From assembly GCA_018267545.1 (NCBI GenBank), contig JAFDYG010000224.1, positions 1-51,210 of the forward strand: a DNA stretch of 51,210 nucleotides, written 5' to 3'. This document shows positions 21,686-51,210 of this stretch, piece after piece. Origin of the DNA: Bacteroidota bacterium (GTDB lineage Bacteria; Bacteroidota; Bacteroidia; Chitinophagales; Chitinophagaceae). The notes beneath the pieces are model-generated. The model was not told the DNA's origin and searched no databases. It saw nothing but the letters and a program-made list of their open reading frames with translations. Position 1 is the first letter of the stretch. Every line of letters begins with the position of its first letter. Position numbers and translations under genes: made by a program.

Positions 21686-22266
21686 TCAATTACCAGACGA
21701 TTTCCGCCCATACCTCAATATCACCAACCCCGACTTCAACCCCTTCGAATCCTTCAACACCAACCTCCGACGCTCTAAACTACCAAACAACGCCTTCCCG
21801 CCACCCAGCAAAGTCGGATTCAACGCAAACCTATACTCATCCACCAAACTCAGCTTGATAAGACTAAAAGCAAACTCAGCCCCACCCCACGCAATTATAT
21901 TCTTTCCCTCCTCTCCTTTCAATCGCCCACCTCTCCCACAAGATCATGCGCTACCCTAGTATTCTTCCAATCCGGCTTGAAATCCCCCCTTGTAAAAACT
22001 ACGTGCTGCGAAGCATCGGCCAGCTTTGCAAACTTCAATTCATTCGGGTCACTATCCGGATTCCGCAGCACCGACTGCCAATAATACCTCGAATAATCCG
22101 GGTACATCTTCCTTCCCAATAAATAAGTATCCGCCGCTTCGATGTCTTTAAATAAATCCACCCACTCCTCATCGCTATTGATCAACCAGTCCATATCCTC
22201 ACCAGGACTGGCGACATATCCATCCAGGGTCACCTGCACGGAAAGAATAAGCTTTCTCTGACTCAT
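21686..22266 (-). pseudogene. Frameshifted dihydrofolate reductase family protein (RibD C-terminal type)
   Basis: Two adjacent reading frames together make one RibD_C/DHFR-like protein. The first (start 22266, MSQRKLILSVQVTLDGYVA, with TYLLGRKMYPDYSRYYW) runs into a TGA at 21919-21921 after VAHDLVGEVGD. The second, in another frame, continues with LKGEEGKNIIAWGGAEFAFS, the nucleotide-binding loop, and GGGKALFG, to 21686. Relatives read straight through this point. The break fits a one-base loss in the stretch around 21922-21928. A TTG at 21922 overlaps the TGA, so reinitiation is conceivable, but neither half would fold alone. It could also be an assembly error. An intact relative is at 14882-15445. 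Confidence 0.8.
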
Positions 22267-22312
22267 GGCTAACGTTTGAAAAGTAATAGTTAAAAGCCTC
22301 AATTCTTATGCC

Positions 22313-32843: not shown

Positions 32844-32866
32844 AAAAGGGGCCCTCAGGCCCCTTT
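32842..32866. terminator. Bidirectional terminator between GDPD and the hybrid sensor gene
   Basis: Stem GGGGCC, 4-nt loop, GGCCCC, flanked by six As on one side and TTT on the other. On the minus strand six Ts follow the stem and the TGA of the sensor gene lies within it; on the plus strand it lies 4 nt past the GDPD stop. Confidence 0.85.
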
Positions 32867-35629
32867 CCGCTTCTTTTCTCTGTACTCCGAAGGGGTAATC
32901 GAAAACTTCGACTTGAACACCGTCGAAAAATACGCCTGCGACGAATACCCCACCCTCGACGCTACTTCCGAAATACTATACTGCGGGTCCGCCAGCAAAA
33001 ACTTCGCCTTTTGCAATCGCACCGTCGAGATATAGTCGTTTACATTATACCCCATCAACGCCTTTACCTTTCGATACAGCTGCACCCTCGAAATCCCGAT
33101 CTCCCGGCAGATATCATCCACGGAAAAATCCTCATTCGGTATATTATTCTCGACAATCGCGATAAATTCATTTACAAACCTGCGCGTCACTTTACTCGTC
33201 GTATTCGGCCGCACCTCCACCGGAATCTCACTCGTATAATGCTCCCGCAAAACCGACCGGTTATTCAACAGATTCTTTATCGTCTCCTCCAAATACTCCA
33301 GATTGAACGGCTTAACGATAAAAGCATCAGCCCGCAGCTTAATCCCCTTGATCTGATCCTCTATCGCCCCCTTCGCCGTCAACAAAATGATCGGAATATG
33401 GGAGGTTCGCAAATCTTGCTTCAACATCTCCGTTACATGAAGACCATCCTCCCCGGGCAAAATAATATCCGATATAATAAGGTCCGGCACGACATCATAC
33501 GCCTTCGCAATCCCCGACGAAGCATCCTCCGCCTCATGCAGCTCATAATTGCCCCCCAGCCGCTTCTTCAAAAACACCCGCAAATCATCATTGTCCTCGA
33601 TCACCAATAAAGAATGCTCCTTCTGCCGCGAAGCCGCCGCCACCGTCTCATCCGCAAACGACATCGGCTGTATATCGGAAGTATAGATCTTGATATCCTC
33701 CATCGTCGGCAACAGCACCGGCAGCTCCGGCGCCACTTCCGTCTCACCCAGCTGCTCCCTCCGCACCGGCAGACTGATAGTAAATGTCGACCCCTTCCAC
33801 TTCGAGCTCTGCACATCGATCGTCCCATGATGCAGATGAATCATTTCTTTCGTCAACGAAAGCCCCAGCCCCGTTCCCTTGAAAGCCTTCTTATTCCCCT
33901 GGTAGAACAGGTCAAACGCATGTTCCAGCTCTTCCGGCGTCATCCCAACCCCCGAATCCTGAACCGTAATCACAACCTGCTCCCCCGAAACATTCCTATC
34001 GATACCCACACTGATGGTCCCATGCTCATTCGTAAACTTAAACGCATTCGACAATAAATTGAACAGCACCTTATCCAGAATATTCACGTCGAACCACATT
34101 CGCAGGTCACGAGCCCTGCTCGTAATCGTAAACGAAATCGACTTCCGCCGGGCAATCTCCTGAAACGAACCCGCAATCTCATTCACGAAATCCGTGATAT
34201 TATTTTCCGTCACCACGAGTCTCATCTTATTCTCCTCGATCTTCCGGAAATCCATCAGCTGATTGATCAGCCGCATCAATCGCAGCGCATTCTTCTGTAC
34301 CAGCTCCAAATTATGCTTGATGGTGAAATGCAGCTTGGGAGAGGACAGCACATCCTCCAACGGCCCCAATATCAACGTCAGCGGCGTCCTAAATTCATGC
34401 GAGATATTGGTAAAGAAATTGAACTTGGCCTCCGTCGCCTCCTTGGCCTTCGCCGTCATCTCGATCAGCTGATTCCGCTGTAACAAGATCTCCTCATTCT
34501 GCCCCGCCAGCCGCCGATTGATACGCCGGTTGTTCCGAAGCGCAAAAAACGCGATCCCACCCAATATCAGCGTAAGCCCCAACGCTATAACCGTCAGGTA
34601 CAGCAGCGTCCGCTGATTATGATAGATCCGCCGCTGCTCCTCCAGCAACGAATACTGCTTCTCGATATCCCTCGTCTGATCATTGATACGGTCCGTCTGC
34701 TGCTTCATCACCCGCACATTCGAAGAATCGATCACAACAGTCGGCATGATATATTCTTTATGGTAGGGCTGCTTCTCCAGGATCGAAAACGCCGTCTTTA
34801 TCGCCTCCTCTCCCCCCGTCGGCGTCAGAAACGTCGCCTGCAAAACCCCATCCGCCACCAGCTGAATCCCCCCATCCGGCCCCGGCAGCCCATCGATTCC
34901 AAAGAATCGCGCCGATCTTTCTATCCCCAAACTCTTATAAACCTCATAAGCCCCCACCGCCATCGGGTCATTCTGGGCAACTACCACATCCGTCGGCTCC
35001 AGCTGATCCTTTATTTTAAGAAAGGCCGCCGTCGACCGGTCCTGTAACCAGCTCCCATAAACCCGCGCCTTGATACGAATATTCGGACTCTGCCGGATCC
35101 GGTCCTCGAACCCCCGCTGCCGCTCCACGCTAGGCGTCGACCCCAATAAACCGATGGCCTCCACGATCTGAGCTGTATCATGTACATAATGCGCCACATA
35201 ATCACCCGCCATACGCCCCAGTTCATAATTATTGATCCCGATGAAACTCGTAAACAAGTCCGAACTCGTCTTCCGGTCGATAACTACCACCGGAATCCCC
35301 CGGTTATACGCCTCCTCGACCACCGACGTCAGCGGCTTGGCCTCATTCGGCGACACCAGCAAAATATCGATATTCTGATTCAACAGCTCCCGGATTTGCC
35401 GTACCTGCAGATCACTCTTGTCATTGGCGCTCCGCTAAATCAGCTGCGTCCCCGGATGAAACGAAAGCTCCCTGGCCATCGCCTCGCGCGTAGCCCTTTT
35501 CCAATTCTCGGTTCCCGTACACTGGGCAAACCCGATCCGGTAATGCTTTTCACTGGAAGAAGGAGAACAAGAGAAAAATAGAACACTTAACCCCAAAAGG
35601 CAGACAATAATAACACGTGTTCTCCACAT
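32855..35629 (-). pseudogene. Fructose-type hybrid two-component sensor-regulator (HTCS), interrupted by an in-frame amber codon
   Basis: The whole frame encodes 924 residues in Bacteroides HTCS order: signal with lipobox (LFFSC, Cys21), a LacI-type periplasmic sugar-binding domain (about 30-310), a membrane helix, HisKA with His411 (NISHEFRTPL), an ATPase domain (GTGLGLSL), a receiver with Asp721 (ISDIILP), and an AraC helix-turn-helix. Its place beside a fructan locus matches BT1754 of B. thetaiotaomicron, which senses fructose. At codon 65 (35435-35437 plus strand) a TAG stops the frame after HPGTQLI; the same frame then resumes (RSANDKSDLQ) and runs to 32855. The likely original codon is Tyr. 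As written it would yield a 64-residue fragment, and a TTG restart at 35383 would lack the signal. A sequence error cannot be excluded. Confidence 0.85.
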
Positions 35630-35938
35630 GGCAATTAGCAAGGCAATCATACGGATAAAATTGAGCGTTTTACCGAAAAAGACATTCTAAACCCGTATCA
35701 TTCTTTTTCAAAAGACCTAAAGCGTATAAAAAACACAGTGAACAATTCCTAAAAAACCTGTTCCAAAACTATAAAACAATACCCCGGCCTTCTTACAATT
35801 TACAAAAATAATCAGCTCAGTCCCACTCATTTGTACTAAAAAATCCATTTTGAACAAGATAGAAATGATTTCAAAAGGCAAGCCGCAGCCCCGCCCATAT
35901 CTTACCTCCCGAAAGCTATCGCCAAAAGCTACTGCCAT
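35630..35938. other. 309-nt intergenic region between the sensor and the MFS gene
   Basis: This is the divergent regulatory region of the fructan locus. It is AT-richer than its neighbours, with A-runs near 35700-35830. No exact TAnnTTTG box with a TTG at proper distance is seen in either direction, and no clear palindrome. A short minus-strand reading frame here is not convincing as a gene. HTCS-controlled promoters often lack recognisable boxes, so the operator is not identifiable by eye. Confidence 0.6.
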
Positions 35939-37258
35939 ATGGGAAGGAAAAACGTATTCATCTGGTCACTCGTCATCGCACTCGGAGGATTTCTATTCGG
36001 CTTCGACACCGCCGTCATCTCCGGGGCCGAACAATCTATTCAGTCTTACTGGAAACTAACCGCCCTTCAACACGGCCTCACCATCTCGATCGCCCTCATC
36101 GGCACCGTCGTAGGCGCCCTGACCGGCGCCATCCCAACCGATCGCTATGGCCGCAAAACAACCCTATATATCATTGCCATACTCTACCTGCTGTCCTCCA
36201 TCGGCACCGCCGCCTCCACCAACTGGTACGGATTTCTCCTATTCCGCTTCCTCGGAGGCTTCGGCGTAGGCGCATCCTCCGTCACCGCCCCCATCTATAT
36301 CTCTGAAATCTCACCGGCTAAAAGACGCGGAAAACTAGTCGGTCTCTTCCAGTTCAACGTCGTCTTCGGCATCGTAGCCTCCTATCTCTCCAATTACCTC
36401 ATCGGCCAGATCGCCGACAACTCCTGGCGCCTCATGCTCGGCATCCAGGCCATCCCCTCCGCCATTTTCCTCCTCCTCCTCCGCTGGATCCCCGAAAGCC
36501 CCCGCTGGCTCATCCTCCATAAAAACAAAATCGACGAAGCCCGCGACACCATCCGAATCATCGACCCACAACGCACCGAAGAAATCATCAACGAAATAAA
36601 AACATCGACAGACCCCACCGAACGCCCCGCACTCTTCTCCCGGCGCTACCGCACCCCCGTCGTCCTCGCCATCCTATTCGCCGTCTTCAACCAGGTCTCC
36701 GGTATCAACGCTATTATATATTATAGCCCCCGCATCTTCGAAATGACAGGCCTGGGCAAAAACTCCGCCCTCCTCTCCACAGCAGGCCTCGGCCTGGTCA
36801 ACTTCGCCTTTACCCTGCTTGCCATGAATTTTATCGACCGCATCGGCCGCCGTACCCTCATGCTCATCGGCTCCTTCGGCCTCATCTTCACCCTGGCCAT
36901 GGTAGCCTGGTCCTTCTACGGCGAACACTTCAACAGCTGGGCAGTCCCCTTATTCCTATTCATCTATATCGCCTTCTTCGCCTTCTCGCAAGGCGCCGTC
37001 ATCTGGGTCTTTATCTCCGAGATCTTCCCCAACTCCGTCCGGGCCAAGGGCCAGACCCTCGGAAGCGCAACCCACTGGATCATGGCCGCCATCATCGCCT
37101 TTTCATTCCCCTGGCTCGCCGAAAAGGCCGGAGGCGGCAACACCTTCCTCTTCTTCTGTATCATGATGTGCATGCAATTGCTCTTCGTCTGGAAACTGAT
37201 GCCCGAGACAAAAGGAAGGTCCTTGGAACAAATAGAATATACCCTGGTTGCTCACTAA
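35939..37258 (+). CDS. Sugar porter MFS transporter, probable fructose importer
   Basis: A 439-residue inner-membrane transporter with 12 hydrophobic helices. The family signatures are DRYGRKTT between helices 2 and 3, the RFLGGFGVGASSVTAPIYI segment, PESPRWL after helix 6, QVSGINAIIYYSP in helix 7, DRIGRRTL between helices 8 and 9, and PETKGRSLEQIE at the C-terminus. It resembles BT1758, the fructose importer of the B. thetaiotaomicron fructan locus. First gene of the fructan operon, 31 nt before fructokinase; fructose specificity is inferred from its neighbours. Confidence 0.93.
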   Translation: MGRKNVFIWSLVIALGGFLFGFDTAVISGAEQSIQSYWKLTALQHGLTISIALIGTVVGALTGAIPTDRYGRKTTLYIIAILYLLSSIGTAASTNWYGFLLFRFLGGFGVGASSVTAPIYISEISPAKRRGKLVGLFQFNVVFGIVASYLSNYLIGQIADNSWRLMLGIQAIPSAIFLLLLRWIPESPRWLILHKNKIDEARDTIRIIDPQRTEEIINEIKTSTDPTERPALFSRRYRTPVVLAILFAVFNQVSGINAIIYYSPRIFEMTGLGKNSALLSTAGLGLVNFAFTLLAMNFIDRIGRRTLMLIGSFGLIFTLAMVAWSFYGEHFNSWAVPLFLFIYIAFFAFSQGAVIWVFISEIFPNSVRAKGQTLGSATHWIMAAIIAFSFPWLAEKAGGGNTFLFFCIMMCMQLLFVWKLMPETKGRSLEQIEYTLVAH

Positions 37259-37289
37259 AGCACCCAGGCCATAATAACATCGATTGCCA

Positions 37290-38189
37290 ATGCCAAAAAC
37301 ACACCCCATCGTCTGTTTTGGAGAGATCCTCTGGGACATCCTCCCCAACGAGACCGTCCCCGGCGGCGCACCCATGAACGTCGCCTTCCACCTCAAGAAA
37401 CTCGGCCTCGAACCCGCCCTCATCACCCGCGTCGGCCTCGACAACTACGGCAAACGCCTCATCCAGCTCATGGAGAAAGAAGATATCACGACCGAATTCT
37501 TCCAGATGGACTTCGAGCTCGACACCGGCCGAGTCACCATGACACCCGGCGAAGGCGACGACATCCACTACGACATCATAAAGCCCGTAGCCTGGGACCA
37601 TGTACAGTGGGACCCCCAATTCCTCCCACTGCTCACCCAGTCCTCCTGGTTTATATACGGCAGCCTGGCCGCCCGCAGCGAAGCCAGCCGCAGCGTCCTC
37701 TACCGCCTCCTCGAAGCCGCCCCCCACAAGGTCCTCGACATCAACCTTCGCCCCCCGCACTATACTCGACCCGTACTCGAAAAGCTCCTCGAAAACGTAG
37801 ACATGCTAAAGCTGAACCTCGGCGAGCTCGAGCTCCTCACCGGCTGGTTCTCCAGCTACCGCTCCGACAACGACCGCATAAAAGCCATCCAGGACCGCTT
37901 CCATATCCCAACCATCATACTTACCAAGGGCAGCAAGGGCTCGACCATGAGCTACGAAGGCGAGTTCTATGAACACCCCGGCTTCACCGTCGACGTCGCA
38001 GACACCGTCGGCAGCGGTGACGCCTTTCTCGCCGGTCTCCTATACTCCCTCATACAGGGCGTAGGCCCGCCGGCAGCTATCGAATTCGCCAGCGCCATGG
38101 GGGCGCTGATCGCGAGCTACAGCGGCCCCTGCCCACAGTATGATATCCGGCAGGTACAAACGCTGATCAAAGGTAACCAACCCCACTAA
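37290..38189 (+). CDS. Fructokinase (PfkB-family carbohydrate kinase)
   Basis: A 299-residue kinase that phosphorylates fructose with ATP in the cytoplasm. The N-terminal signature is CFGEILWDILPNE, then PGGAPMNVAFHLKKLG (sugar binding). The C-terminal signature DTVGSGDAFLAGLL contains the catalytic base Asp244. ATG 37290 is preferred to a TTG 6 nt upstream. Its counterpart in the B. thetaiotaomicron fructan locus is BT1757. It sits 31 nt after the transporter and 41 nt before susC, in the same operon. Confidence 0.92.
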   Translation: MPKTHPIVCFGEILWDILPNETVPGGAPMNVAFHLKKLGLEPALITRVGLDNYGKRLIQLMEKEDITTEFFQMDFELDTGRVTMTPGEGDDIHYDIIKPVAWDHVQWDPQFLPLLTQSSWFIYGSLAARSEASRSVLYRLLEAAPHKVLDINLRPPHYTRPVLEKLLENVDMLKLNLGELELLTGWFSSYRSDNDRIKAIQDRFHIPTIILTKGSKGSTMSYEGEFYEHPGFTVDVADTVGSGDAFLAGLLYSLIQGVGPPAAIEFASAMGALIASYSGPCPQYDIRQVQTLIKGNQPH

Positions 38190-38230
38190 AAATTCAAGCA
38201 ACCTTCATGCATAACCAACAAACAACAATT

Positions 38231-41200
38231 ATGAGAAAAGTATGGATTTTATTGCCACTGCTATTGCTGGTCATCACCAGCTTTGCACAGCAAAAAATCA
38301 TCACCGGACAGGTGGTCAGAAATTCCACCAAAGAACCCTTGCAAGGGGTGACGGTTCTCTCTAAAACCAAGTCCGTAATGACCGACTCCGCCGGACGGTT
38401 TTCGATTTCCGCCGCACCCGGCGAGACCCTCACCCTCAGCTTCGTTGGAATGAACAGCCTGACCGTAAAAGTCGGCGCCTCCTCCAGCGAGCTCAGCCTC
38501 GCCATGATCGAAGGGATCAACGACCTCAACCAGGTCGTCGTCACCGGTTACAAATCGGAAAAGAAAGTCGACCTCACCGGCGCCGTATCCGTGGTGAACC
38601 TCGCAGCAGTCAAGGACATCCCGACCACAAGCCCCATGCTCGCCCTCCAGGGACAGGTACCCGGCCTCTACGTATCGGCCGACGGCTCCCCCACCGGCGG
38701 TAACGGCAACCCGCCCACTATCCTCGTCCGTGGCGTCAACACCCTCGGCAACACAAACCCCCTCTATATCATCGACGGGGTACCTACCACACGCTACGAA
38801 GACTTCTCCAATCTCAACTCCGCTTCCATCGCCTCCATTCAGGTGCTGAAGGACGCTTCCGCTTCCTCCATCTATGGCTCCCGCGCTTCCAACGGCGTCA
38901 TCATCGTCACCACTAAGGACGGCGGTGGTTCCGGCGAAAAGCTAAAGGTAAGTCTCAACTCCAGCCTCACCTGGCAGACCGAACGCCCCTGGCAGGAGAA
39001 AGTGCTGAACTCCGAACAGAGAGGACGCGCACTCTGGCAGGCTGCCGTAAACGACGGCACCGACCCAAATAACCTCGTCAATCAGATTTATACATTCGAC
39101 TGGAACAATGACTACACCAACCCCGTCCTCAACAAGGTCAATATCGCCCCCTTCGTAGGCGGCAGCCAGCTCGAACCCGTCGGCAATACCAACTGGCAGA
39201 ACGAGCTTTACAAAACTGCCCTGCTCACCACCAACGACATCGGCATCTCAGCAGGCAACGCCAGAAACGCGATCTCCCTCAACTTCGGCTATCTCGACAA
39301 CAGCGGCCTGCTCCAGTATACTACTTTCCGCCGGTACAACGCCCGCATCAACTCCCACGCCACCGGCTTCAACGGCCGCCTGCGAATCGGAGAGAACCTG
39401 CAGCTATCGAGAACTTCCCAGGTAGGCTCGGGCAAAGACCCCGGCGGAGCCTGGACTCCAACCCTGGCGCTCATCCTGGCCCCCACCATACCGCTTAGAA
39501 AAACCGACGGCACCTTCGGCGGCCCCATCGGCCCCGGCTACACCGATCGTAACAACCCCGTAGATATCCAATACCTCAACCGCTGGAACACGACCGCAAG
39601 ACTACAGGCTTACGGCAATATCTATGCGGAACTGGAAGTCATAAAAAAACTCGTCCTTCGCACCAGCTTCGGCTTCGACTACTCCGACGAGCCCTCCCGC
39701 TACATCACCCTCATCGGCGATGAAGGCCCGGTCAATTCGTTCAATAGCCTGACGATGACACAGGGCAAAGATTTCACCTTCACCTGGACAAATACCGCTA
39801 CCTATAATCTCGAAATCGGGCAGCACCGCCTGAACCTCCTGGGAGGCATCGAAGCCGTCCACAACGACTACTCCGTCATCAACGGCTCCGTCACCAACTT
39901 CGCCCTCCAGCAGCTCGACTACTTTCAGCTCGGAGCCGGCACCGGCACACAGACGACCAGCGGCAGCGCCACGGGTTATCGACTCTTATCTCAATTCGGT
40001 AAAGTGTTCTACGGCTACGGCGACCGCTACCTCGCCTCCTTTACCATCCGCCGCGACGGGTCCTCGAGATTCGGTACGAATAACCCCTACGGCGTATTCC
40101 CCGCATTTACCCTCGGCTGGCGTATCAACAACGAAGAGTTCTTCCGCAATATCCACTCCGTCTCCAACCTCAAGCTGCGCGGCGGCTATGGCGTCGTGGG
40201 CAACCAGGCCATCGGCAACCTCTCGGCCTATACGCTCTTCCAGCCCAACTACGGCACTTCCAGCGCCGCCTATCCCCAGTGGCTCAACACGGGTACCGCC
40301 TATGACCTCAACGGCATTAACACCGGCACCCTGCCCTCGGGATTCGTACAGGTACAGCTGGGCAACCCCAACCTGAAATGGGAACAAACAAAAGAAACCA
40401 ATATCGGCCTCGACTTCGGCTTTATGGACGAAAGCCTCACCGGTAGCTTCGACTGGTTCGACCGCAACACCAGCAATATCCTCATCCAGCCCCCCGTTGC
40501 AGCCGCCGTCGGTGAAGGCCAGCAACAATGGCTCAACGGCGCCAGCATCAACAACAAAGGATGGGAGCTGGTCGTAAGCTATCAGCACAAGACACCAAGT
40601 AACATCCACTATAGCATAACGGGTAACCTCAGCCATTTCTCGAACGTCATCACCAAGCTGCCAGAAAACGTTCGCTCCGCCTATCCCGGCGACCCGAACC
40701 ACTCTATCATCGGACATTCCCAGTATTCCGTCTTCGGCTACAAGGCCAGCGGAATCTTCCAAAGCCAGCAGGAGGTGACCGCACATGCCACACAGCCCGG
40801 CGCAGCGCCCGGACGCATCCGCTACGACGACCTCAACGGTGACGGTAAGGTCGACGTCCTCGACCAGGACTTCCTCGGCACCACGCTGCCGAAATATATT
40901 TATGGCCTCCGGCTATCGGTAGACTATAAGAATTTCGACATATCCATCTTCGGCTCCGGCGTCTTCTCCGTAACCAACTATGACCCCGCCAAAGGCTTCA
41001 ACACGACCATCGCACCCAATACCAACGCAGGCCCCGGTGTATTCAGCGCCTGGACGAAACAAAATACCGGCTCGTCCATACCCGCGCTCACCGTCCTCAA
41101 CCTGAACAACGAAGGCCGCACGTCTAATTATTATTTTGTAAACGGCGCCTTCTTCAAGCTCCGCAATGCAATGATCGGCTACACGCTGCCAAAACAGCTG

Positions 41201-41362
41201 GCATCGAGAGCGTTCATGCAAAGCCTCCGGCTGTATGCCTCGGGACAAAATCTCTTCGCCATCAAGTCCGGTAAGCTAACGTCCAAAGACCCCGAACGGA
41301 CCAATTTCAATTCCTGGCCCGTACCGACCTCCTTTACCGTCGGTATAAACGCCAATTTCTAA
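38231..41362 (+). CDS. SusC/RagA-family TonB-linked outer-membrane protein
   Basis: A 1043-residue outer-membrane oligosaccharide importer. A signal peptide (MRKVWILLPLLLLVITSFAQ) is followed by a carboxypeptidase-like beta-sandwich (TGQVVRNSTKEPLQGVTVLS), the TonB-box/plug (VVTGYKSEKKVDLTGAV, LQGQVPGLYV, RGVNTLGNTNPLYIIDGVPT, SIYGSRASNGVIIV), and then a 22-strand-type barrel to the C-terminus. It pairs with the SusD-like gene 17 nt downstream. Start ATG 38231 gives the signal peptide; a 24-nt upstream ATG would add eight polar residues. Its likely substrate is fructan (levan or inulin). Confidence 0.95.
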   Translation: MRKVWILLPLLLLVITSFAQQKIITGQVVRNSTKEPLQGVTVLSKTKSVMTDSAGRFSISAAPGETLTLSFVGMNSLTVKVGASSSELSLAMIEGINDLNQVVVTGYKSEKKVDLTGAVSVVNLAAVKDIPTTSPMLALQGQVPGLYVSADGSPTGGNGNPPTILVRGVNTLGNTNPLYIIDGVPTTRYEDFSNLNSASIASIQVLKDASASSIYGSRASNGVIIVTTKDGGGSGEKLKVSLNSSLTWQTERPWQEKVLNSEQRGRALWQAAVNDGTDPNNLVNQIYTFDWNNDYTNPVLNKVNIAPFVGGSQLEPVGNTNWQNELYKTALLTTNDIGISAGNARNAISLNFGYLDNSGLLQYTTFRRYNARINSHATGFNGRLRIGENLQLSRTSQVGSGKDPGGAWTPTLALILAPTIPLRKTDGTFGGPIGPGYTDRNNPVDIQYLNRWNTTARLQAYGNIYAELEVIKKLVLRTSFGFDYSDEPSRYITLIGDEGPVNSFNSLTMTQGKDFTFTWTNTATYNLEIGQHRLNLLGGIEAVHNDYSVINGSVTNFALQQLDYFQLGAGTGTQTTSGSATGYRLLSQFGKVFYGYGDRYLASFTIRRDGSSRFGTNNPYGVFPAFTLGWRINNEEFFRNIHSVSNLKLRGGYGVVGNQAIGNLSAYTLFQPNYGTSSAAYPQWLNTGTAYDLNGINTGTLPSGFVQVQLGNPNLKWEQTKETNIGLDFGFMDESLTGSFDWFDRNTSNILIQPPVAAAVGEGQQQWLNGASINNKGWELVVSYQHKTPSNIHYSITGNLSHFSNVITKLPENVRSAYPGDPNHSIIGHSQYSVFGYKASGIFQSQQEVTAHATQPGAAPGRIRYDDLNGDGKVDVLDQDFLGTTLPKYIYGLRLSVDYKNFDISIFGSGVFSVTNYDPAKGFNTTIAPNTNAGPGVFSAWTKQNTGSSIPALTVLNLNNEGRTSNYYFVNGAFFKLRNAMIGYTLPKQLASRAFMQSLRLYASGQNLFAIKSGKLTSKDPERTNFNSWPVPTSFTVGINANF

Positions 41363-41379: not shown

Positions 41380-43134
41380 ATGAAAACCATATGGAGTTAC
41401 GGTCTTCTGTTAATAGTGCTACTGTCCAACATGGGCTGTAAAAAATATCTCGACTACAAACCCCAGGGCGCCCTTTCTGTCAGCGACCTGAACACCCCCG
41501 CTGCAGTCGACGGCCTGGCCACAGCCGCCTACGCCGGCATCGCCAACGACTGGTGGGACGCACCCATCACCAGCAACTGGGAATGGGGCAGCATCCGCTC
41601 CGACGACGCCTACAAAGGCGGCGGAGACATCGGCGACCAGGGGCAACTCGACCGCTATGAACAATTCTATCTCGTAGACGCCTCCAACAACGGCTTCGGC
41701 AGCTTCGGCTTCACCGGCGCCTGGGTCCGCGCCTACGCCGCGATCTCCCGCTGCAACGTCGCCCTCCGTGCCCTCAACCAGCTCACCGACGCGCAGTTCC
41801 CCAAACGGACCATCCGCATCGGCGAAATGCGCTTCCTCCGCGGTCACATGTATTTCTTGCTAAAGGTCCTGTTCCGCAACATCCCCTATATTGACGAAAA
41901 AGCAACCAACGACGACATCGTCAAGATCAATAACACCCTCAGCAACGACGATCTCTGGACCAAAATTGAAGCGGACTTCCAGGAAGCCATCAAAGACCTC
42001 CCCCAAAAACAACCCGGCGAACCCGGCCGCGCCAACCAGCTCTCGGCCAAGGCATACCTGGCAAAAGTGATGCTCTTCCACGCCTACAAACAGGATGACA
42101 ACTACGGCGTCACCACCATCGACCCCGCCCTGCTTACCCAGGTCGTCAGCCTCACCAACGACGTCATCAACTCGAAGGTCTATAGCCTCAATACCGACTT
42201 CGCGTATAATTTCCTCGATGGACACGATAATGGCCCCGAATCCATCTACGCCATTCAATACTCCATCAACGACGGTACGACGATCGGCGGCAGACTCAGC
42301 ATGTCGACCAGCCTCAACTATTTCGCAGGCGCCCCCCAATACGGCTGCTGCGCCTTCCATATCCCTTCACAAAACCTGGTCAACGCCTTCAAAACCGACG
42401 CCAATGGCCTTCCCCAGTTCGATCACTTCAACGACCCCGGCACCGAGGTAAAGGATAGCATCGACTTCTGGACCAACGGCATCGACCCCCGCATCGACCA
42501 TACCGTCGGCATCGACGGTCACCCCTACAAATATGACGCAACAGTTCCCTACCGGCACAGCTGGGAACGCCTCTCCGGCGTCTACGGCGGCTTCGGCAGC
42601 ATGAAGGAGCAGCAGCTCGCCACCTGCGCCTGCTTCAAAAAGCTCGGCCCCTTCTATGGCACTTCCGTCAATATGGACGTCATCCGCTACGACGACGTGC
42701 TGCTCATGCAGGCGGAAGCCCAGATTCAATTGAACAACCCGGCCCCTGCCCTCGACCTCATAAACCAGGTCCGCACAAGAGCAGCAGCCATCTCACCCCT
42801 GGTCAAAAGAACGGACGGCACCAATCCCTCCAATTACCGCATCAGCACCTACAAACCCGGTGTCAATATCCCCACCTGGGACAAGGCTACCGCCTTCAAA
42901 GCCCTCCAATGGGAACGAAGGCTCGAATTTGCCATGGAAGGCTACCGCTTCTTCGACCTCGTCCGCTGGGGTACCGCAGATGTCACATTAAATAATTACT
43001 TTACGATAGAAAAAGTAAGACATCCGTTCCTGGTCAACGCAAAATTCACAAAGGGTAAGCACGAATACTTCCCCATACCACAGGAACAAATCGTCTTTAC
43101 CAATGGTCTGTACAAACAAAATAAAGGATATTAA
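41380..43134 (+). CDS. SusD/RagB-family substrate-binding lipoprotein
   Basis: A 584-residue surface glycan-binding lipoprotein. The signal peptide ends in a lipobox (LLSNMGC, then KKYLDYKPQGALS). The SusD TPR-helical core and the C-terminal hallmark QWERRLEFAMEGYRFFDLVRWG are present, and the protein ends with YFPIPQEQI. It acts with the SusC protein encoded 17 nt upstream to bind and hand over oligosaccharide. The GH32 gene follows after 1 nt. Confidence 0.95.
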   Translation: MKTIWSYGLLLIVLLSNMGCKKYLDYKPQGALSVSDLNTPAAVDGLATAAYAGIANDWWDAPITSNWEWGSIRSDDAYKGGGDIGDQGQLDRYEQFYLVDASNNGFGSFGFTGAWVRAYAAISRCNVALRALNQLTDAQFPKRTIRIGEMRFLRGHMYFLLKVLFRNIPYIDEKATNDDIVKINNTLSNDDLWTKIEADFQEAIKDLPQKQPGEPGRANQLSAKAYLAKVMLFHAYKQDDNYGVTTIDPALLTQVVSLTNDVINSKVYSLNTDFAYNFLDGHDNGPESIYAIQYSINDGTTIGGRLSMSTSLNYFAGAPQYGCCAFHIPSQNLVNAFKTDANGLPQFDHFNDPGTEVKDSIDFWTNGIDPRIDHTVGIDGHPYKYDATVPYRHSWERLSGVYGGFGSMKEQQLATCACFKKLGPFYGTSVNMDVIRYDDVLLMQAEAQIQLNNPAPALDLINQVRTRAAAISPLVKRTDGTNPSNYRISTYKPGVNIPTWDKATAFKALQWERRLEFAMEGYRFFDLVRWGTADVTLNNYFTIEKVRHPFLVNAKFTKGKHEYFPIPQEQIVFTNGLYKQNKGY

Positions 43135-43135
43135 C

Positions 43136-44629
43136 ATGAAGCAAACGATGCTATGCATTGGCCTGACGCTCGCAGCCGGTCTCCTGCAACCGGCTGCAGC
43201 ACAAACGCCAACACCACAATGGCGCCCGGTCTACCATTTCACTCCAGCAAAAAACTGGACCAACGACCCCAATGGGCCCATCTACTACAAAGGAGAATAC
43301 CTGATCTATAACCAGCAAAATCCCTTCGAAAACAAATGGGGACACATGAGCTGGGGACACGCCACATCCAAAGACCTCCTGCACTGGAACCGCCTCCCTA
43401 TAGCCATCCCTGAGAAAATCGACAGAACCAAAAAGGACACCACCTGGATCTTCTCCGGCTCCGCCGTCTGGGACAAAGACAACACCAGCGGCTTCGGCAA
43501 AGCCGGCGGCCCCGGCCCCCTCGTCGCCATCTACACGGCCCACCAGCCCAATCTCAAAAAGGAATCGCAATACATCGCCTACAGCAACGACGGCGGCCAC
43601 ACTTATACCAACTACCCAGGCAACCCCGTCATCGACCTCAACAAGCACGACTTCCGTGACCCCAACGTCTTCTGGCACACGCCATCCAAACAATGGATCA
43701 TGACCGTCGTCCTGCCCGCCGAACACAAGGCCCACTTCTATGGCTCGCATGACCTCAAGAAATGGACCCTCCTCAGCGAATTCGGGCCGCAAGGTTATAC
43801 CTCCGCCTATTGGGAATGCCCATCGCTCATCGAGCTGCCCGTCAAAGATCAGCCCGGTAAAACCAAATGGCTGCTCATGGTCTCCGCAGCCGGCGGCCCC
43901 CGCGGCGTCTTTATGCAATACTTCATCGGAAGCTTCGACGGCAAGACCTTCACCAACGAAGCCCCCTCCGACAAGGTCCTCTCCGTCGACGACGGCGACT
44001 GCCTCTACGCAGCCATCCCCTGGAACAACATGCCCGACAATCAAAAAGTCCTCATCGGCTGGATGATCCCCGGCAAGCAACAAACCTATCCCTGGACAGG
44101 GCAGTTCAGTATCTCCCGCGACATGAGCGTCGAAAAGACACCCGACGGTTGGCGCCTCCTCCAGGAACCCGCAGCCATCGTCCGCAAAGCCCTGCCAATC
44201 GCCAGCCAGCGAAAAGGCATCATGCTCAGCTCCAAAGGAACACCAATAACCGAAGCCAAAAACAACGCCTACTGGCTCGACGCTTCCTTCGGCACAAAAA
44301 CAGCATCGACAATCGGCTTCAAAGTAGCACAAGGCCCCGGCGGCACAGAAACCATCATCGCCTACGACAAAGCCACCCACTCGGTCTACATCGCCCGCCC
44401 GGAAAAACCGAAAATCAAAGCAGAGTTACCCGCCGGCACAGAATTATCTAGCCTGCAAATCCTGCTCGACAAATCTTCCCTCGAAGTCTTCGTCAACCAC
44501 GGCGAAAAAGTATTGACCTGCTATATCTACCCCGACGAAAAATCAACCGGCGTCACAGCCTTCGCAGAAGGCGGCGACGCCCTAATCGCACATCTGAAAA
44601 TATGGAACTTGGGAACCGCATCGCACTAA
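43136..44629 (+). CDS. GH32 fructanase (levanase/inulinase type), exported
   Basis: A 497-residue glycoside hydrolase that cleaves beta-fructosyl links of levan, inulin or sucrose. A signal peptide (MKQTMLCIGLTLAAGLLQPAAAQ) precedes a five-blade propeller with the family triad: nucleophile Asp44 (WTNDPNG), stabiliser Asp175 (FRDPNVFW) and acid/base Glu227 (YWECPSL). A C-terminal beta-sandwich follows (SLEVFVNHGEKVLT). No lipobox is seen, so a periplasmic location is likely. Levan versus inulin preference cannot be told. It lies 1 nt after susD, and its last 28 nt overlap the thioredoxin-like gene. Confidence 0.94.
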   Translation: MKQTMLCIGLTLAAGLLQPAAAQTPTPQWRPVYHFTPAKNWTNDPNGPIYYKGEYLIYNQQNPFENKWGHMSWGHATSKDLLHWNRLPIAIPEKIDRTKKDTTWIFSGSAVWDKDNTSGFGKAGGPGPLVAIYTAHQPNLKKESQYIAYSNDGGHTYTNYPGNPVIDLNKHDFRDPNVFWHTPSKQWIMTVVLPAEHKAHFYGSHDLKKWTLLSEFGPQGYTSAYWECPSLIELPVKDQPGKTKWLLMVSAAGGPRGVFMQYFIGSFDGKTFTNEAPSDKVLSVDDGDCLYAAIPWNNMPDNQKVLIGWMIPGKQQTYPWTGQFSISRDMSVEKTPDGWRLLQEPAAIVRKALPIASQRKGIMLSSKGTPITEAKNNAYWLDASFGTKTASTIGFKVAQGPGGTETIIAYDKATHSVYIARPEKPKIKAELPAGTELSSLQILLDKSSLEVFVNHGEKVLTCYIYPDEKSTGVTAFAEGGDALIAHLKIWNLGTASH

Positions 44630-48437: not shown

Positions 48438-49409
48438 TTAATAGTACTTCTCCAAAATCTTAACCACCTCCACATGCCCCTTGCTCCTCGCCCACGCGAT
48501 CGGCAGCGACCACTCCGCCCCCGAAACAAAGGGATCTGCCCCCCGCTCCAACAAAAACTTCACCATCTCCACTTGTCCCCACCTCGCCGCCAAACCCAGC
48601 GGAGTCGATTGAAACGCATCATCCACCGGATCGATCTCCGCCCCATCCCGCCACAATAACTCCGCCTTATCGATCGCACCCTTCTGCGCCATATCGTGCA
48701 GCAGCCGCACCCGCTGCCAGTTCATCACATTGGGATTCATCCCCCTCTCCATGATAAATACAGCATTCTCGTACGTCTCGAAGTAATAAAATTGCGCCCA
48801 TTTCAAAATATCCGGCACCGTTGCCCCATAACGCAGCAACAGCTCGGCCATTTCAAAATAACCATCCTTCACCGGCATCGTCAGAATACCCTCACTCCAG
48901 AAATACGTATTGTCAAGCGCAAACTCAGGATGGTCGTTCAAAATACTCCTCGCCTCTTCAATCCAGTTCTGATCGACGGCCTTCTCGAATGCCGTCTGCA
49001 CCGCCGTCCGCCCATAATCGATCCTCCCATTATCTTTACGAAAACGAACCCTCCCGCAACGCGCATACTCATCCAGCAAACTCTCGATTTCCTCGAATCC
49101 TCGGTCCCCCGCTACCGTCTGCAAACTATCCAAAAAGGGATAAATCCGGTAGTCCGGATCATGCGCCCCTTCCTTTAATAAATACTTTACCAGCTCGACA
49201 TGTCCCTGCCTTACCGCAAAATGAATCGGCGGGGCATAATTATACTGGGCATACAACAGCCCCTGGCATTCGGCCCCCAAAGACTTAACCTCCTCCAGAT
49301 CTCCGCGATAAGCAGCACGCAGCACCCTCCACACCTGCGTCGTAGTAGCCACCTGGTCACCCCCAACGGTCATGGGTAGATATAATTTCAGCTCCGGAGG
49401 TTGTATCAT
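48438..49409 (-). CDS. Ankyrin-repeat protein
   Basis: A 323-residue soluble protein with ankyrin repeats. Clear ones are APPIHFAVRQGHVELVKYLLKEG (about residues 60-82), TPLGLAARWGQVEMVKFLLERGADP (about 268-292), and LPIAWARSKGHVEVVKILEKYY at the end. Weaker repeats lie between. It has no signal peptide. A target partner cannot be inferred. Its ATG overlaps the TAA of the DUF1624-GNAT gene by one base (TAATG), so it is translated in coupling with it. Confidence 0.85.
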   Translation of the reverse strand: MIQPPELKLYLPMTVGGDQVATTTQVWRVLRAAYRGDLEEVKSLGAECQGLLYAQYNYAPPIHFAVRQGHVELVKYLLKEGAHDPDYRIYPFLDSLQTVAGDRGFEEIESLLDEYARCGRVRFRKDNGRIDYGRTAVQTAFEKAVDQNWIEEARSILNDHPEFALDNTYFWSEGILTMPVKDGYFEMAELLLRYGATVPDILKWAQFYYFETYENAVFIMERGMNPNVMNWQRVRLLHDMAQKGAIDKAELLWRDGAEIDPVDDAFQSTPLGLAARWGQVEMVKFLLERGADPFVSGAEWSLPIAWARSKGHVEVVKILEKYY

Positions 49410-51073
49410 TATAATAAAACTTTTAGATCATTCCAGCCATACCCGCCATGAAACTCGCCATTTGTCGCATAAATCCTCTTCCCACCCATCGCCTCATAAA
49501 ACCCACCCGACGGATTCTGCGGAACCCCAAAAAGAACCATGTTATCGATGCCCATCTCCACCAGCCTCTTCGCCGCCTCATTCATCAACATCCGGCCGAT
49601 TCCCATCCGTTGATAATCCCGCAGCACATACAGCTTATTCAGTTCCCCCCGGTACTCCGGCAAATCCTCATGCCCATATCGCTGCGCCTTTACAAAACCC
49701 ACCGCCTCCCCACGCTCATCCTCCGCCAGCAAACAAAACCAGTCGTCCCCCTTCCCCTGGAACATACACCCCCATTGCCACATCCTCTTCTCCACACTTG
49801 GCCCCCTCGCCACCACTCCATACGTCTCATTCCAGCTCCTCACATGCAGCTCCGCCAATCGAGGCGCGTCCTCCGCAGTAGCCTCCCGGATCTGAAAATG
49901 ACAGCTGAGCCCCCTGGCCTCCAGCTTTCGCTTATTCAGACGGGCCGAAGGCCTAAATAACCCCCTAAACCTACGAATAACCGTATTCAAATTATTTTTC
50001 AATAACACCTTATTCCCCCAATACCACCTGCATAAAAAATACAAAACAACCTCCACTAAGATAAACACCAAATACAGTAACGGCAAGCCCCACCGCAACC
50101 CCTCCGGCAATCCCGAAAACGGTGCAGTCAAATAGCGCCCCTGCAGGGTCTCCCCAACCCTCAGCCAGTTCACCAGCAACGCAGCCGAATGAATCAATAA
50201 AATATGCAGGATGTAATAAAAAAGCGGTACCCGCCCATACACGATAAACACACGCGCAAGCCACCCCTTCGCCCGCTCTGCATACGGCACCAGCACGATC
50301 AGCGGCCCAAGCGTCATCAGCAGATACAGCTGCGACGCCGGGTACTTTTGTTGTCCCAGCAACCTGTACAGAAACGGCTGAGGTCCCGGCCTCTCCAAAG
50401 CCAAAATACTTCCTACCACCAAAAACAGCCCGATAGCCGACCACCCAATCCACCTGCACCACCGATCCCTGAGCGGCGCAGGCTGCTGCAATAAAGCGCC
50501 AAACCCATAGCCCGCCATCATCACCCCAATCCAGGGTACGATTACGTATAACACGCTGATACCACCCGGCGCATCCTCGCTGATCGTATAGATGAAATTC
50601 CACCAATCCCAGTTGCCCGGCGCCAGCTTAAATACCTGCTGCAAAGCCACCAGCGCAAGCCCCAATATCCAAACTACACGCAACGGCAGCCAGATAAACG
50701 CCGCGATCAATACCATACACCAGCCCAGCATCCAGATGACACCGGCCAGCTTGAATTCCATAAGATGTACATTGAAAGACCAGAAGAACCGGAGCAGCGT
50801 CATTTCCAGCAACACCAGCCATAAACCACGGAACAGCAAATACCGCGACAAAGCCGCCTTCCCATTTAGCCGCTGGCCGTATAAAAACGCAGAAGCGCCG
50901 GCAAAAAAGGCAAATCCCGATACGCAAAAATGTGTCACCCAACGGGTGAAGAACACCGCCGGGTCCGGTCCTCCCGCAGGTATCCCCGAATAAACCCGGA
51001 CGTGATCGATAGCCATCAAGACCATAATCACCCCCCTGAGCAGATCGATAGAAGACAGACGCTTGGTCAACAT
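49409..51073 (-). CDS. DUF1624-like membrane protein fused to a GNAT acetyltransferase
   Basis: A 554-residue protein. Residues 1 to about 375 form a polytopic membrane domain with a DUF1624 (heparan-alpha-glucosaminide N-acetyltransferase-like) N-terminus: SSIDLLRGVIMVLMAIDHVR is the hallmark with the conserved Asp-His. Nine or so helices end near YFLCRWYWGNKVLL. A basic linker (RPSARLNKRKLEAR) follows. From about residue 400 a complete GNAT N-acetyltransferase is present: IREATAEDAPRLAELHV, then RMGIGRMLMNEAAKRLVE (acetyl-CoA loop) and VPQNPSGGFYEAMG. The frame is open throughout. Start ATG 51073 is favoured, as residues before it are Gly/Arg-rich. The substrates are unknown. Confidence 0.83.
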   Translation of the reverse strand: MLTKRLSSIDLLRGVIMVLMAIDHVRVYSGIPAGGPDPAVFFTRWVTHFCVSGFAFFAGASAFLYGQRLNGKAALSRYLLFRGLWLVLLEMTLLRFFWSFNVHLMEFKLAGVIWMLGWCMVLIAAFIWLPLRVVWILGLALVALQQVFKLAPGNWDWWNFIYTISEDAPGGISVLYVIVPWIGVMMAGYGFGALLQQPAPLRDRWCRWIGWSAIGLFLVVGSILALERPGPQPFLYRLLGQQKYPASQLYLLMTLGPLIVLVPYAERAKGWLARVFIVYGRVPLFYYILHILLIHSAALLVNWLRVGETLQGRYLTAPFSGLPEGLRWGLPLLYLVFILVEVVLYFLCRWYWGNKVLLKNNLNTVIRRFRGLFRPSARLNKRKLEARGLSCHFQIREATAEDAPRLAELHVRSWNETYGVVARGPSVEKRMWQWGCMFQGKGDDWFCLLAEDERGEAVGFVKAQRYGHEDLPEYRGELNKLYVLRDYQRMGIGRMLMNEAAKRLVEMGIDNMVLFGVPQNPSGGFYEAMGGKRIYATNGEFHGGYGWNDLKVLL

Positions 51074-51210
51074 AATGACCAAATTACCCCTGCCTCCCCG
51101 GCCCAAAAAAGATTTTTGACAACCGTCCTGCCCTCCGGGTCATCTGGAATAAATTCCGTGATATTCCGGCCCACATCCCCCCCCTCCACCCCCCCTCCCC
51201 CCCCCCCCCC
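51074..51210. other. C-rich window edge
   Basis: 137 nt with no gene. The final 34 nt are almost pure C, broken by a few T and A, ending in a run of 14 Cs at 51197-51210. It could be the low-quality end of a contig or a real homopolymer. Confidence 0.6.

What the first reader, a model, noticed from the sequence alone, without database searches (positions are those of the whole stretch)
35435..35437. Fructan-locus sensor stopped by one in-frame amber codon
The minus-strand frame of the hybrid sensor runs from a lipobox signal at 35629 to its stop at 32855 with one TAG at codon 65 and no shift of frame; both sides align as one protein. The sensor should control the adjacent SusC/SusD/GH32 operon. 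The rest (kinase, receiver, AraC) is intact, so any loss is recent, or the stop is read through, or it is a sequencing error.
Basis: partly seen in the sequence, partly recalled or inferred. Interest (0 to 1): 0.7.

Follow-up and report, generated by a model that had tools for sequence, protein, structure and literature searches.

The report
Fructan sensor gene with private stop
A sugar-sensing regulator gene beside a set of fructan-use genes in a Chitinophagaceae-like bacterium carries one stop codon that none of the compared relatives has; this looks like an ordinary recent loss, or an error in a draft genome, not a special decoding trick.

Summary
The minus-strand hybrid two-component sensor is one frame from ATG 35650 to 32855, broken only by TAG at 35437-35435 (codon 72 from the start that relatives share, not 65). 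Both sides align as one protein with 23 distinct relatives covering the site; none has a stop there, 15 of 23 have Tyr. No decay shows elsewhere in the gene, so the change is young or an error. The neighbouring MFS-PfkB-SusC-SusD-GH32 genes are open.

Read-through or recoding is not supported: TAG ends 340 of 1,403 long ORFs in a third of this genome; none of 40 called tRNAs reads UAG. RF1 is missing from the assembly, probably in a gap. Four more genes in the parts examined have one in-frame stop, three TAG and one TAA, an excess of TAG that codon usage explains. The window also holds a frameshifted RibD_C gene. Best reading: a private nonsense allele; without reads, a base-call error cannot be excluded.

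The parts
35438..35650 (-). N-terminal piece of the HTCS gene: ATG 35650, signal/lipobox-like segment (LFFSC) and the first part of the periplasmic sugar-binding domain (71 codons)
   Evidence: the closest relatives begin at the equivalent of ATG 35650
35435..35437 (-). in-frame TAG (codon 72 from ATG 35650; codon 65 from ATG 35629)
   Evidence: no stop in 23 of 23 distinct relatives covering the site
32855..35434 (-). remainder of the HTCS gene, 859 open codons then TGA: rest of Peripla_BP_4, HisKA, HATPase_c, Response_reg, HTH_18
35939..37258 (+). MFS sugar transporter (Sugar_tr), divergent from the HTCS
   Evidence: a match within 3 kb of the HTCS in 20 of 20 relatives' loci compared, on the opposite strand upstream in 19
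37284..38189 (+). PfkB-family sugar kinase
   Evidence: matched in 12 of 20 loci
38207..41362 (+). SusC-like TonB-dependent receptor, open frame
   Evidence: matched in 19 of 20 loci
41380..43134 (+). SusD-like protein, open frame
   Evidence: matched in 18 of 20 loci
43103..44629 (+). GH32 glycoside hydrolase (the family holds fructan-degrading enzymes; recalled), open frame
   Evidence: matched in 13 of 20 loci, some of the held stretches ending within the operon

Best explanation
The gene encodes a BT1754-type hybrid two-component sensor beside a fructan-type locus. In this one genome it has acquired a single nonsense codon (TAG) in the periplasmic sugar-binding domain. Inferred mechanism: translation ends after 71 residues, leaving only the signal segment and the first part of the sensor; a restart downstream (first in-frame start TTG 35383, first ATG 35212) would give a protein without its export signal and without the N-terminal part of the sensor, so sugar-dependent induction of the divergent MFS-PfkB-SusC-SusD-GH32 operon should be lost or strongly reduced. 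The change is young because nothing else in the gene has decayed. Shown: the stop, the homology across it, the absence of a stop in the relatives compared, the open remainder and operon. Inferred: that the base is real, that the protein is not made, and the effect on the operon.
For:: one protein, one stop, none in 23 relatives covering the site; at 467 columns invariant in six outgroups the window alone differs at 10, sister G022 alone at 20, both at 15, so no excess change in the window; dN to G022 is about 0.09 with synonymous sites saturated; no second copy with this sensor domain among the listed matches (list cut at its weak end); every other listed own-genome match begins at residue 226 or later of the 859-residue piece. 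TAG is a working terminator (11 of the 35 window ORFs I took as genes; 340 of 1,403 long ORFs); other singly interrupted genes occur (SusC C184 TAG, SusC C519 TAG, metallo-hydrolase C450 TAG, C396 TAA); the best solved match of the sensor domain is 2x7x, listed only as 'sensor protein'; that it is BT1754 is recalled. PMC3404733 (passages): BT1754 has a periplasmic fructose-sensing domain, and its deletion is described as preventing or strongly delaying growth on fructose.
Against: No read data: a wrong base call at 35435-35437 would look the same. The preservation of the rest is also what an error predicts. The other interrupted genes in the assembly fit errors as well as mutations.
Confidence: 0.6

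Rival explanations
1. The TAG is a base-call or consensus error in a fragmented draft assembly; the living cell has an intact sensor.
For: 553 contigs, 94.7% complete; no decay elsewhere in the gene; operon frames open; other isolated single-stop interruptions and a frameshifted RibD_C gene in the same assembly.
Against: Such interruptions look rare: in 2.43 Mb with 1,403 long ORFs I recognised two in-frame-stop genes by coding signal, this one included, and one more by homology (C396); the scans are not fully sensitive. Nothing specific marks this base as doubtful.
Confidence: 0.32
2. The amber codon is read through, by a suppressor tRNA or weakened release-factor-1 termination, so a full-length sensor is made.
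For: RF1 was not found in the assembly while 29 of 33 genomes searched in the genus (own included among the 33) have it over the cut-off. Four of the five singly interrupted genes recognised have TAG. The tRNA set is incomplete (no His or Ile among 40 called), so a missing suppressor cannot be excluded.
Against: TAG ends 340 of 1,403 long ORFs. RF1's likely place is a contig break: C437 (4,022 bases) carries the block seen next to RF1 in relatives and ends before RF1's expected place, and the gene on RF1's other side was not found either (the empty answer has no positive control). None of 40 called tRNAs has anticodon CUA. Codon usage predicts 51-54% of new stops to be TAG, so 4 of 5 is unremarkable. 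None of 23 relatives has a stop at this site, and residues at the interrupted sites differ: mostly Tyr here, mostly Pro at C519, Ala and Gly in the two matches at C184.
Confidence: 0.05
3. The locus is switching to life without the sensor: its loss is adaptive, with the operon constitutive or under another regulator.
For: Operon genes are open while the only sensor of this type found is broken.
Against: A single young stop gives no sign of selection; no compensating change was looked for.
Confidence: 0.03

Closest known systems
BT1754, fructose-sensing hybrid two-component system of Bacteroides thetaiotaomicron (PMC3404733, passages; PDB 2x7x is its sensor domain by recall)
   Same: Sensor domain homologous over residues 6-301 of the intact relative's 324-residue stretch (2x7x, E 1.6e-72); kinase, receiver and AraC regions follow; next to a SusC/SusD/GH32 locus.
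   Different: Here interrupted by TAG; 2x7x has Ile at the aligned position, so the Tyr itself is not a required residue. Ligand untested here.
Intact orthologues in named Chitinophagaceae (e.g. Puia dinghuensis L067, Flavitalea sp. BT771 L065, Terrimonas pollutisoli L070; family for the first and third)
   Same: Same sensor, same divergent MFS-PfkB-SusC-SusD neighbourhood.
   Different: No stop in the sensor.
Amber recoding with a suppressor tRNA (as in some crAss-like phages; recalled, PMC12386605 seen only as a search listing with the start of its abstract)
   Same: An in-frame TAG inside an otherwise conserved gene.
   Different: TAG remains a common terminator, no CUA tRNA was found, no conservation of the site.

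Membership tests
BT1754-type hybrid two-component system (HTCS) | Periplasmic Peripla_BP_4-type sensor homologous to 2x7x | tested here: met
   with the intact relative's domain
BT1754-type hybrid two-component system (HTCS) | HisKA + HATPase_c + receiver + AraC-type HTH in one chain | tested here: met
   (domains present in one frame after the stop)
BT1754-type hybrid two-component system (HTCS) | Adjacent to a SusC/SusD polysaccharide locus | tested here: met
BT1754-type hybrid two-component system (HTCS) | Uninterrupted reading frame | tested here: not met
   TAG at 35437-35435; a member by descent, presumably a non-functional allele if the base is real
BT1754-type hybrid two-component system (HTCS) | Senses fructose and induces the neighbouring operon | not testable with these tools
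   needs bench work
Amber recoding or suppression | tRNA with anticodon CUA | tested here: inconclusive
   none among 40 called tRNAs; tRNA set incomplete
Amber recoding or suppression | Loss or weakening of RF1 | tested here: inconclusive
   not in the assembly, but its neighbourhood seems to fall in a gap
Amber recoding or suppression | TAG avoided as terminator | tested here: not met
   ends 11 of 35 window ORFs taken as genes; 340 of 1,403 long ORFs
Amber recoding or suppression | Stop conserved in relatives | tested here: not met
   0 of 23 distinct relatives covering the site

The most novel reading that the evidence does not exclude
This lineage tolerates internal amber codons: a UAG suppressor tRNA or weakened RF1, both hidden in gaps of the assembly, lets the sensor and the three other TAG-interrupted genes (two SusC, one metallo-hydrolase) be made at reduced level.
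Probability: 0.03. Interest if true: 0.7.

Novelty: new member of a known kind. Interest (0 to 1): 0.12.

Why it matters
If the base is real, the strain is a natural loss-of-sensor mutant of a conserved fructan-type locus, useful as a comparison strain but not a new principle. If it is an error, it is a caution about single stops in draft genomes. The sensor-MFS-SusC arrangement seen in 19 of the 20 loci compared suggests that the Bacteroides fructose-sensor model extends to other families of Bacteroidota.

Tried and rejected
Recoding through loss of RF1: raised seriously when prfA failed to appear (I read the hit as prfB from its sequence and its frameshift-like 5' end, motif recalled), then set aside on terminator usage and on the assembly gap. 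Single-codon coding scores could not detect interrupted genes (this stop was not in the 45 rows printed); a two-codon model ranked the two cases then known 5th and 11th of 528 and was used. That scan has limited sensitivity, and its 68 selected candidates of 5,255 pairs tested were judged by eye from the flanking residues: I read nearly all as gene junctions or shadow frames, and a few (such as C485 at 82668) stay unresolved. In the homology scan seven sites were printed, 3 TAG, 3 TAA and 1 TGA; I set aside three: two (C363 8305 TAA, C406 107166 TGA) whose only query was a frame opposite the window's MacB gene, and one (C406 134957 TAA) that I read as a SusC-SusD junction. If those three were true breaks the TAG excess would be smaller still. 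TAG share was tested against codon usage and is not significant (one search gives 0.13-0.16 for 3 of 3; my own binomial estimate for at least 4 of 5 is 0.20-0.24). A dN/dS ratio against the nearest relative was not possible because synonymous sites are saturated. The 27-base search of genome contigs found nothing, but that collection may leave out this genome, so it tests little. Paper searches for interrupted PUL sensors (0 papers hold all three terms) and amber recoding in Bacteroidetes (17 papers hold 3 of 4 terms, 10 listings seen) gave nothing closer. The orthologues' residues at the C450 and C184 sites were not read: the loci could not be cut out.

Full report
The observation. The minus strand has one TAG at 35437-35435 in an otherwise open frame ending at TGA 32857-32855. 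The first-stage reader started the protein at ATG 35629. The closest relatives share a start like MIALL upstream, matching ATG 35650 in the window, so the stop is codon 72 of a 931-residue frame. Read with X at the stop, one Peripla_BP_4 domain spans the site and is followed by HisKA, HATPase_c, Response_reg and HTH_18: a hybrid two-component system. Its best match among solved structures is the sensor domain 2x7x, which the tool lists only as 'sensor protein' and which I recall to be BT1754 of Bacteroides thetaiotaomicron.

Relatives. A search of 33 genomes listed for the genus (own included) gave 12 orthologues from other genomes, none with a stop inside the match. A scan of named genomes gave 30 loci, of which I used 20 for alignment and synteny; I dropped the 10 others, which match only part of the protein or are distant. 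One (L073) is cut before the site, so 23 cover it: 15 Tyr, 2 Leu, 2 Phe, 1 each Ala, Val, Ile, Lys, and no stop. 2x7x has Ile there. The position lies in a conserved stretch but its side chain varies.

The locus. In the window an MFS transporter, PfkB kinase, SusC, SusD and GH32 gene run divergently from the sensor, all open. Of 20 relatives' loci an MFS match lies within 3 kb in 20 (on the opposite strand upstream in 19), SusC is matched in 19, SusD in 18, GH32 in 13 and PfkB in 12; some held stretches end within the operon. No second sensor of this type was among the listed matches in the genome (its list is cut at the weak end).

Age of the stop. Against the nearest relative (G022, 87% identical over the compared piece) synonymous sites are saturated and dN is about 0.09, similar before and after the stop. 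At 467 columns invariant in six outgroups the window alone differs at 10, G022 alone at 20, both at 15. The gene has thus not decayed, so the stop is recent or an error. No tool here can separate the two.

Is TAG read? Eleven of the 35 window ORFs that I took as genes and 340 of 1,403 long coding ORFs in 2.43 Mb of this genome end in TAG. Of 42 tRNA matches, ARAGORN called 40, none with anticodon CUA; the other two are weak (30.2 bits) and uncalled, and His and Ile tRNAs are missing, so the set is incomplete. RF1 was not found, while 29 of the 33 genomes pass the cut-off. In two relatives (L141, L142) RF1 lies between a gene that I read as an amidohydrolase and a block that I read as anti-sigma, peptidyl-prolyl isomerase and serS; the contig of the nearest relative ends at RF1 itself (these names are read from sequence, no family search was run). 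In this genome that block sits on a 4,022-base contig that ends before RF1's expected place, and the amidohydrolase query found nothing (no positive control in this genome). A gap is the simplest reading.

Background of interrupted genes. Of 139 Plug-domain matches in this genome, I inspected fifteen with short or edge-placed frames and judged the other 124 only by frame length. Two SusC genes are split by one in-frame TAG: C184 (274 + 791 residues) and C519 (630 + at least 325). A coding-signal scan of 2.43 Mb gave 68 candidates, nearly all gene junctions or shadow frames by eye; besides the window gene one looked broken, a metallo-hydrolase on C450 with one TAG, and relatives align across it without a stop (3 of 3 other genomes matched at E <= 1e-60). 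A homology scan printed seven sites: the HTCS, C184 and C519 again, one TAA case on C396, and three that I set aside as shadow frames or a junction. Four of these five genes have TAG, where codon usage predicts 51-54%. Residues at the sites differ: mostly Tyr here, mostly Pro at C519 (40 of 48 matches), Ala and Gly in the two matches at C184. There is thus no evidence that TAG stands for one amino acid. The window itself holds another broken gene, a RibD_C protein split between two frames at 21919-21943.

Conclusion. The finding is real as sequence but ordinary in kind: a private single-stop interruption in a conserved fructan-type sensor, either a recent loss or an assembly error, with recoding unlikely.

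Noticed in passing
window 21686-22305, minus strand: A RibD_C-family protein is split between two overlapping frames (128 and 85 residues matching profile 1-79 and 126-196), i.e. a second broken gene in the window.
   Followed up: yes
L168:3266-3268 (G000 C184): SusC gene split by a single in-frame TAG, with a SusD-like frame after it; five matches at 83-88% identity in other genomes have no stop.
   Followed up: partly
L175:978-980 (G000 C519), minus strand: Another SusC gene split by a single in-frame TAG; 40 of 48 aligned homologues have Pro there.
   Followed up: partly
L217:13338-13340 (G000 C450:53338-53340), minus strand: Metallo-beta-lactamase-fold protein with one in-frame TAG; relatives align across it without a stop.
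   Followed up: partly
G000 C396:42892, minus strand: A gene interrupted by in-frame TAA, with 57% and 47% identity on the two sides to an own-genome homologue.
   Followed up: no
G000 C185:15201-17177 (L134): Cluster of tRNA-Phe, Ser and Tyr genes with two weak tRNA-like matches nearby; might be part of a mobile element.
   Followed up: no
window 35567-35581, minus strand, and relatives: The sensor has a lipobox-like Cys at the end of its signal segment; a Cys stands there in 21 of 23 distinct relatives covering the region (L068 and L074 lack it), so this sensor might be lipid-anchored at its N-terminus.
   Followed up: no
window 49409-51106, minus strand: One frame carries an HGSNAT_cat domain followed by a GNAT acetyltransferase domain, which struck me as an unusual combination.
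   Followed up: no
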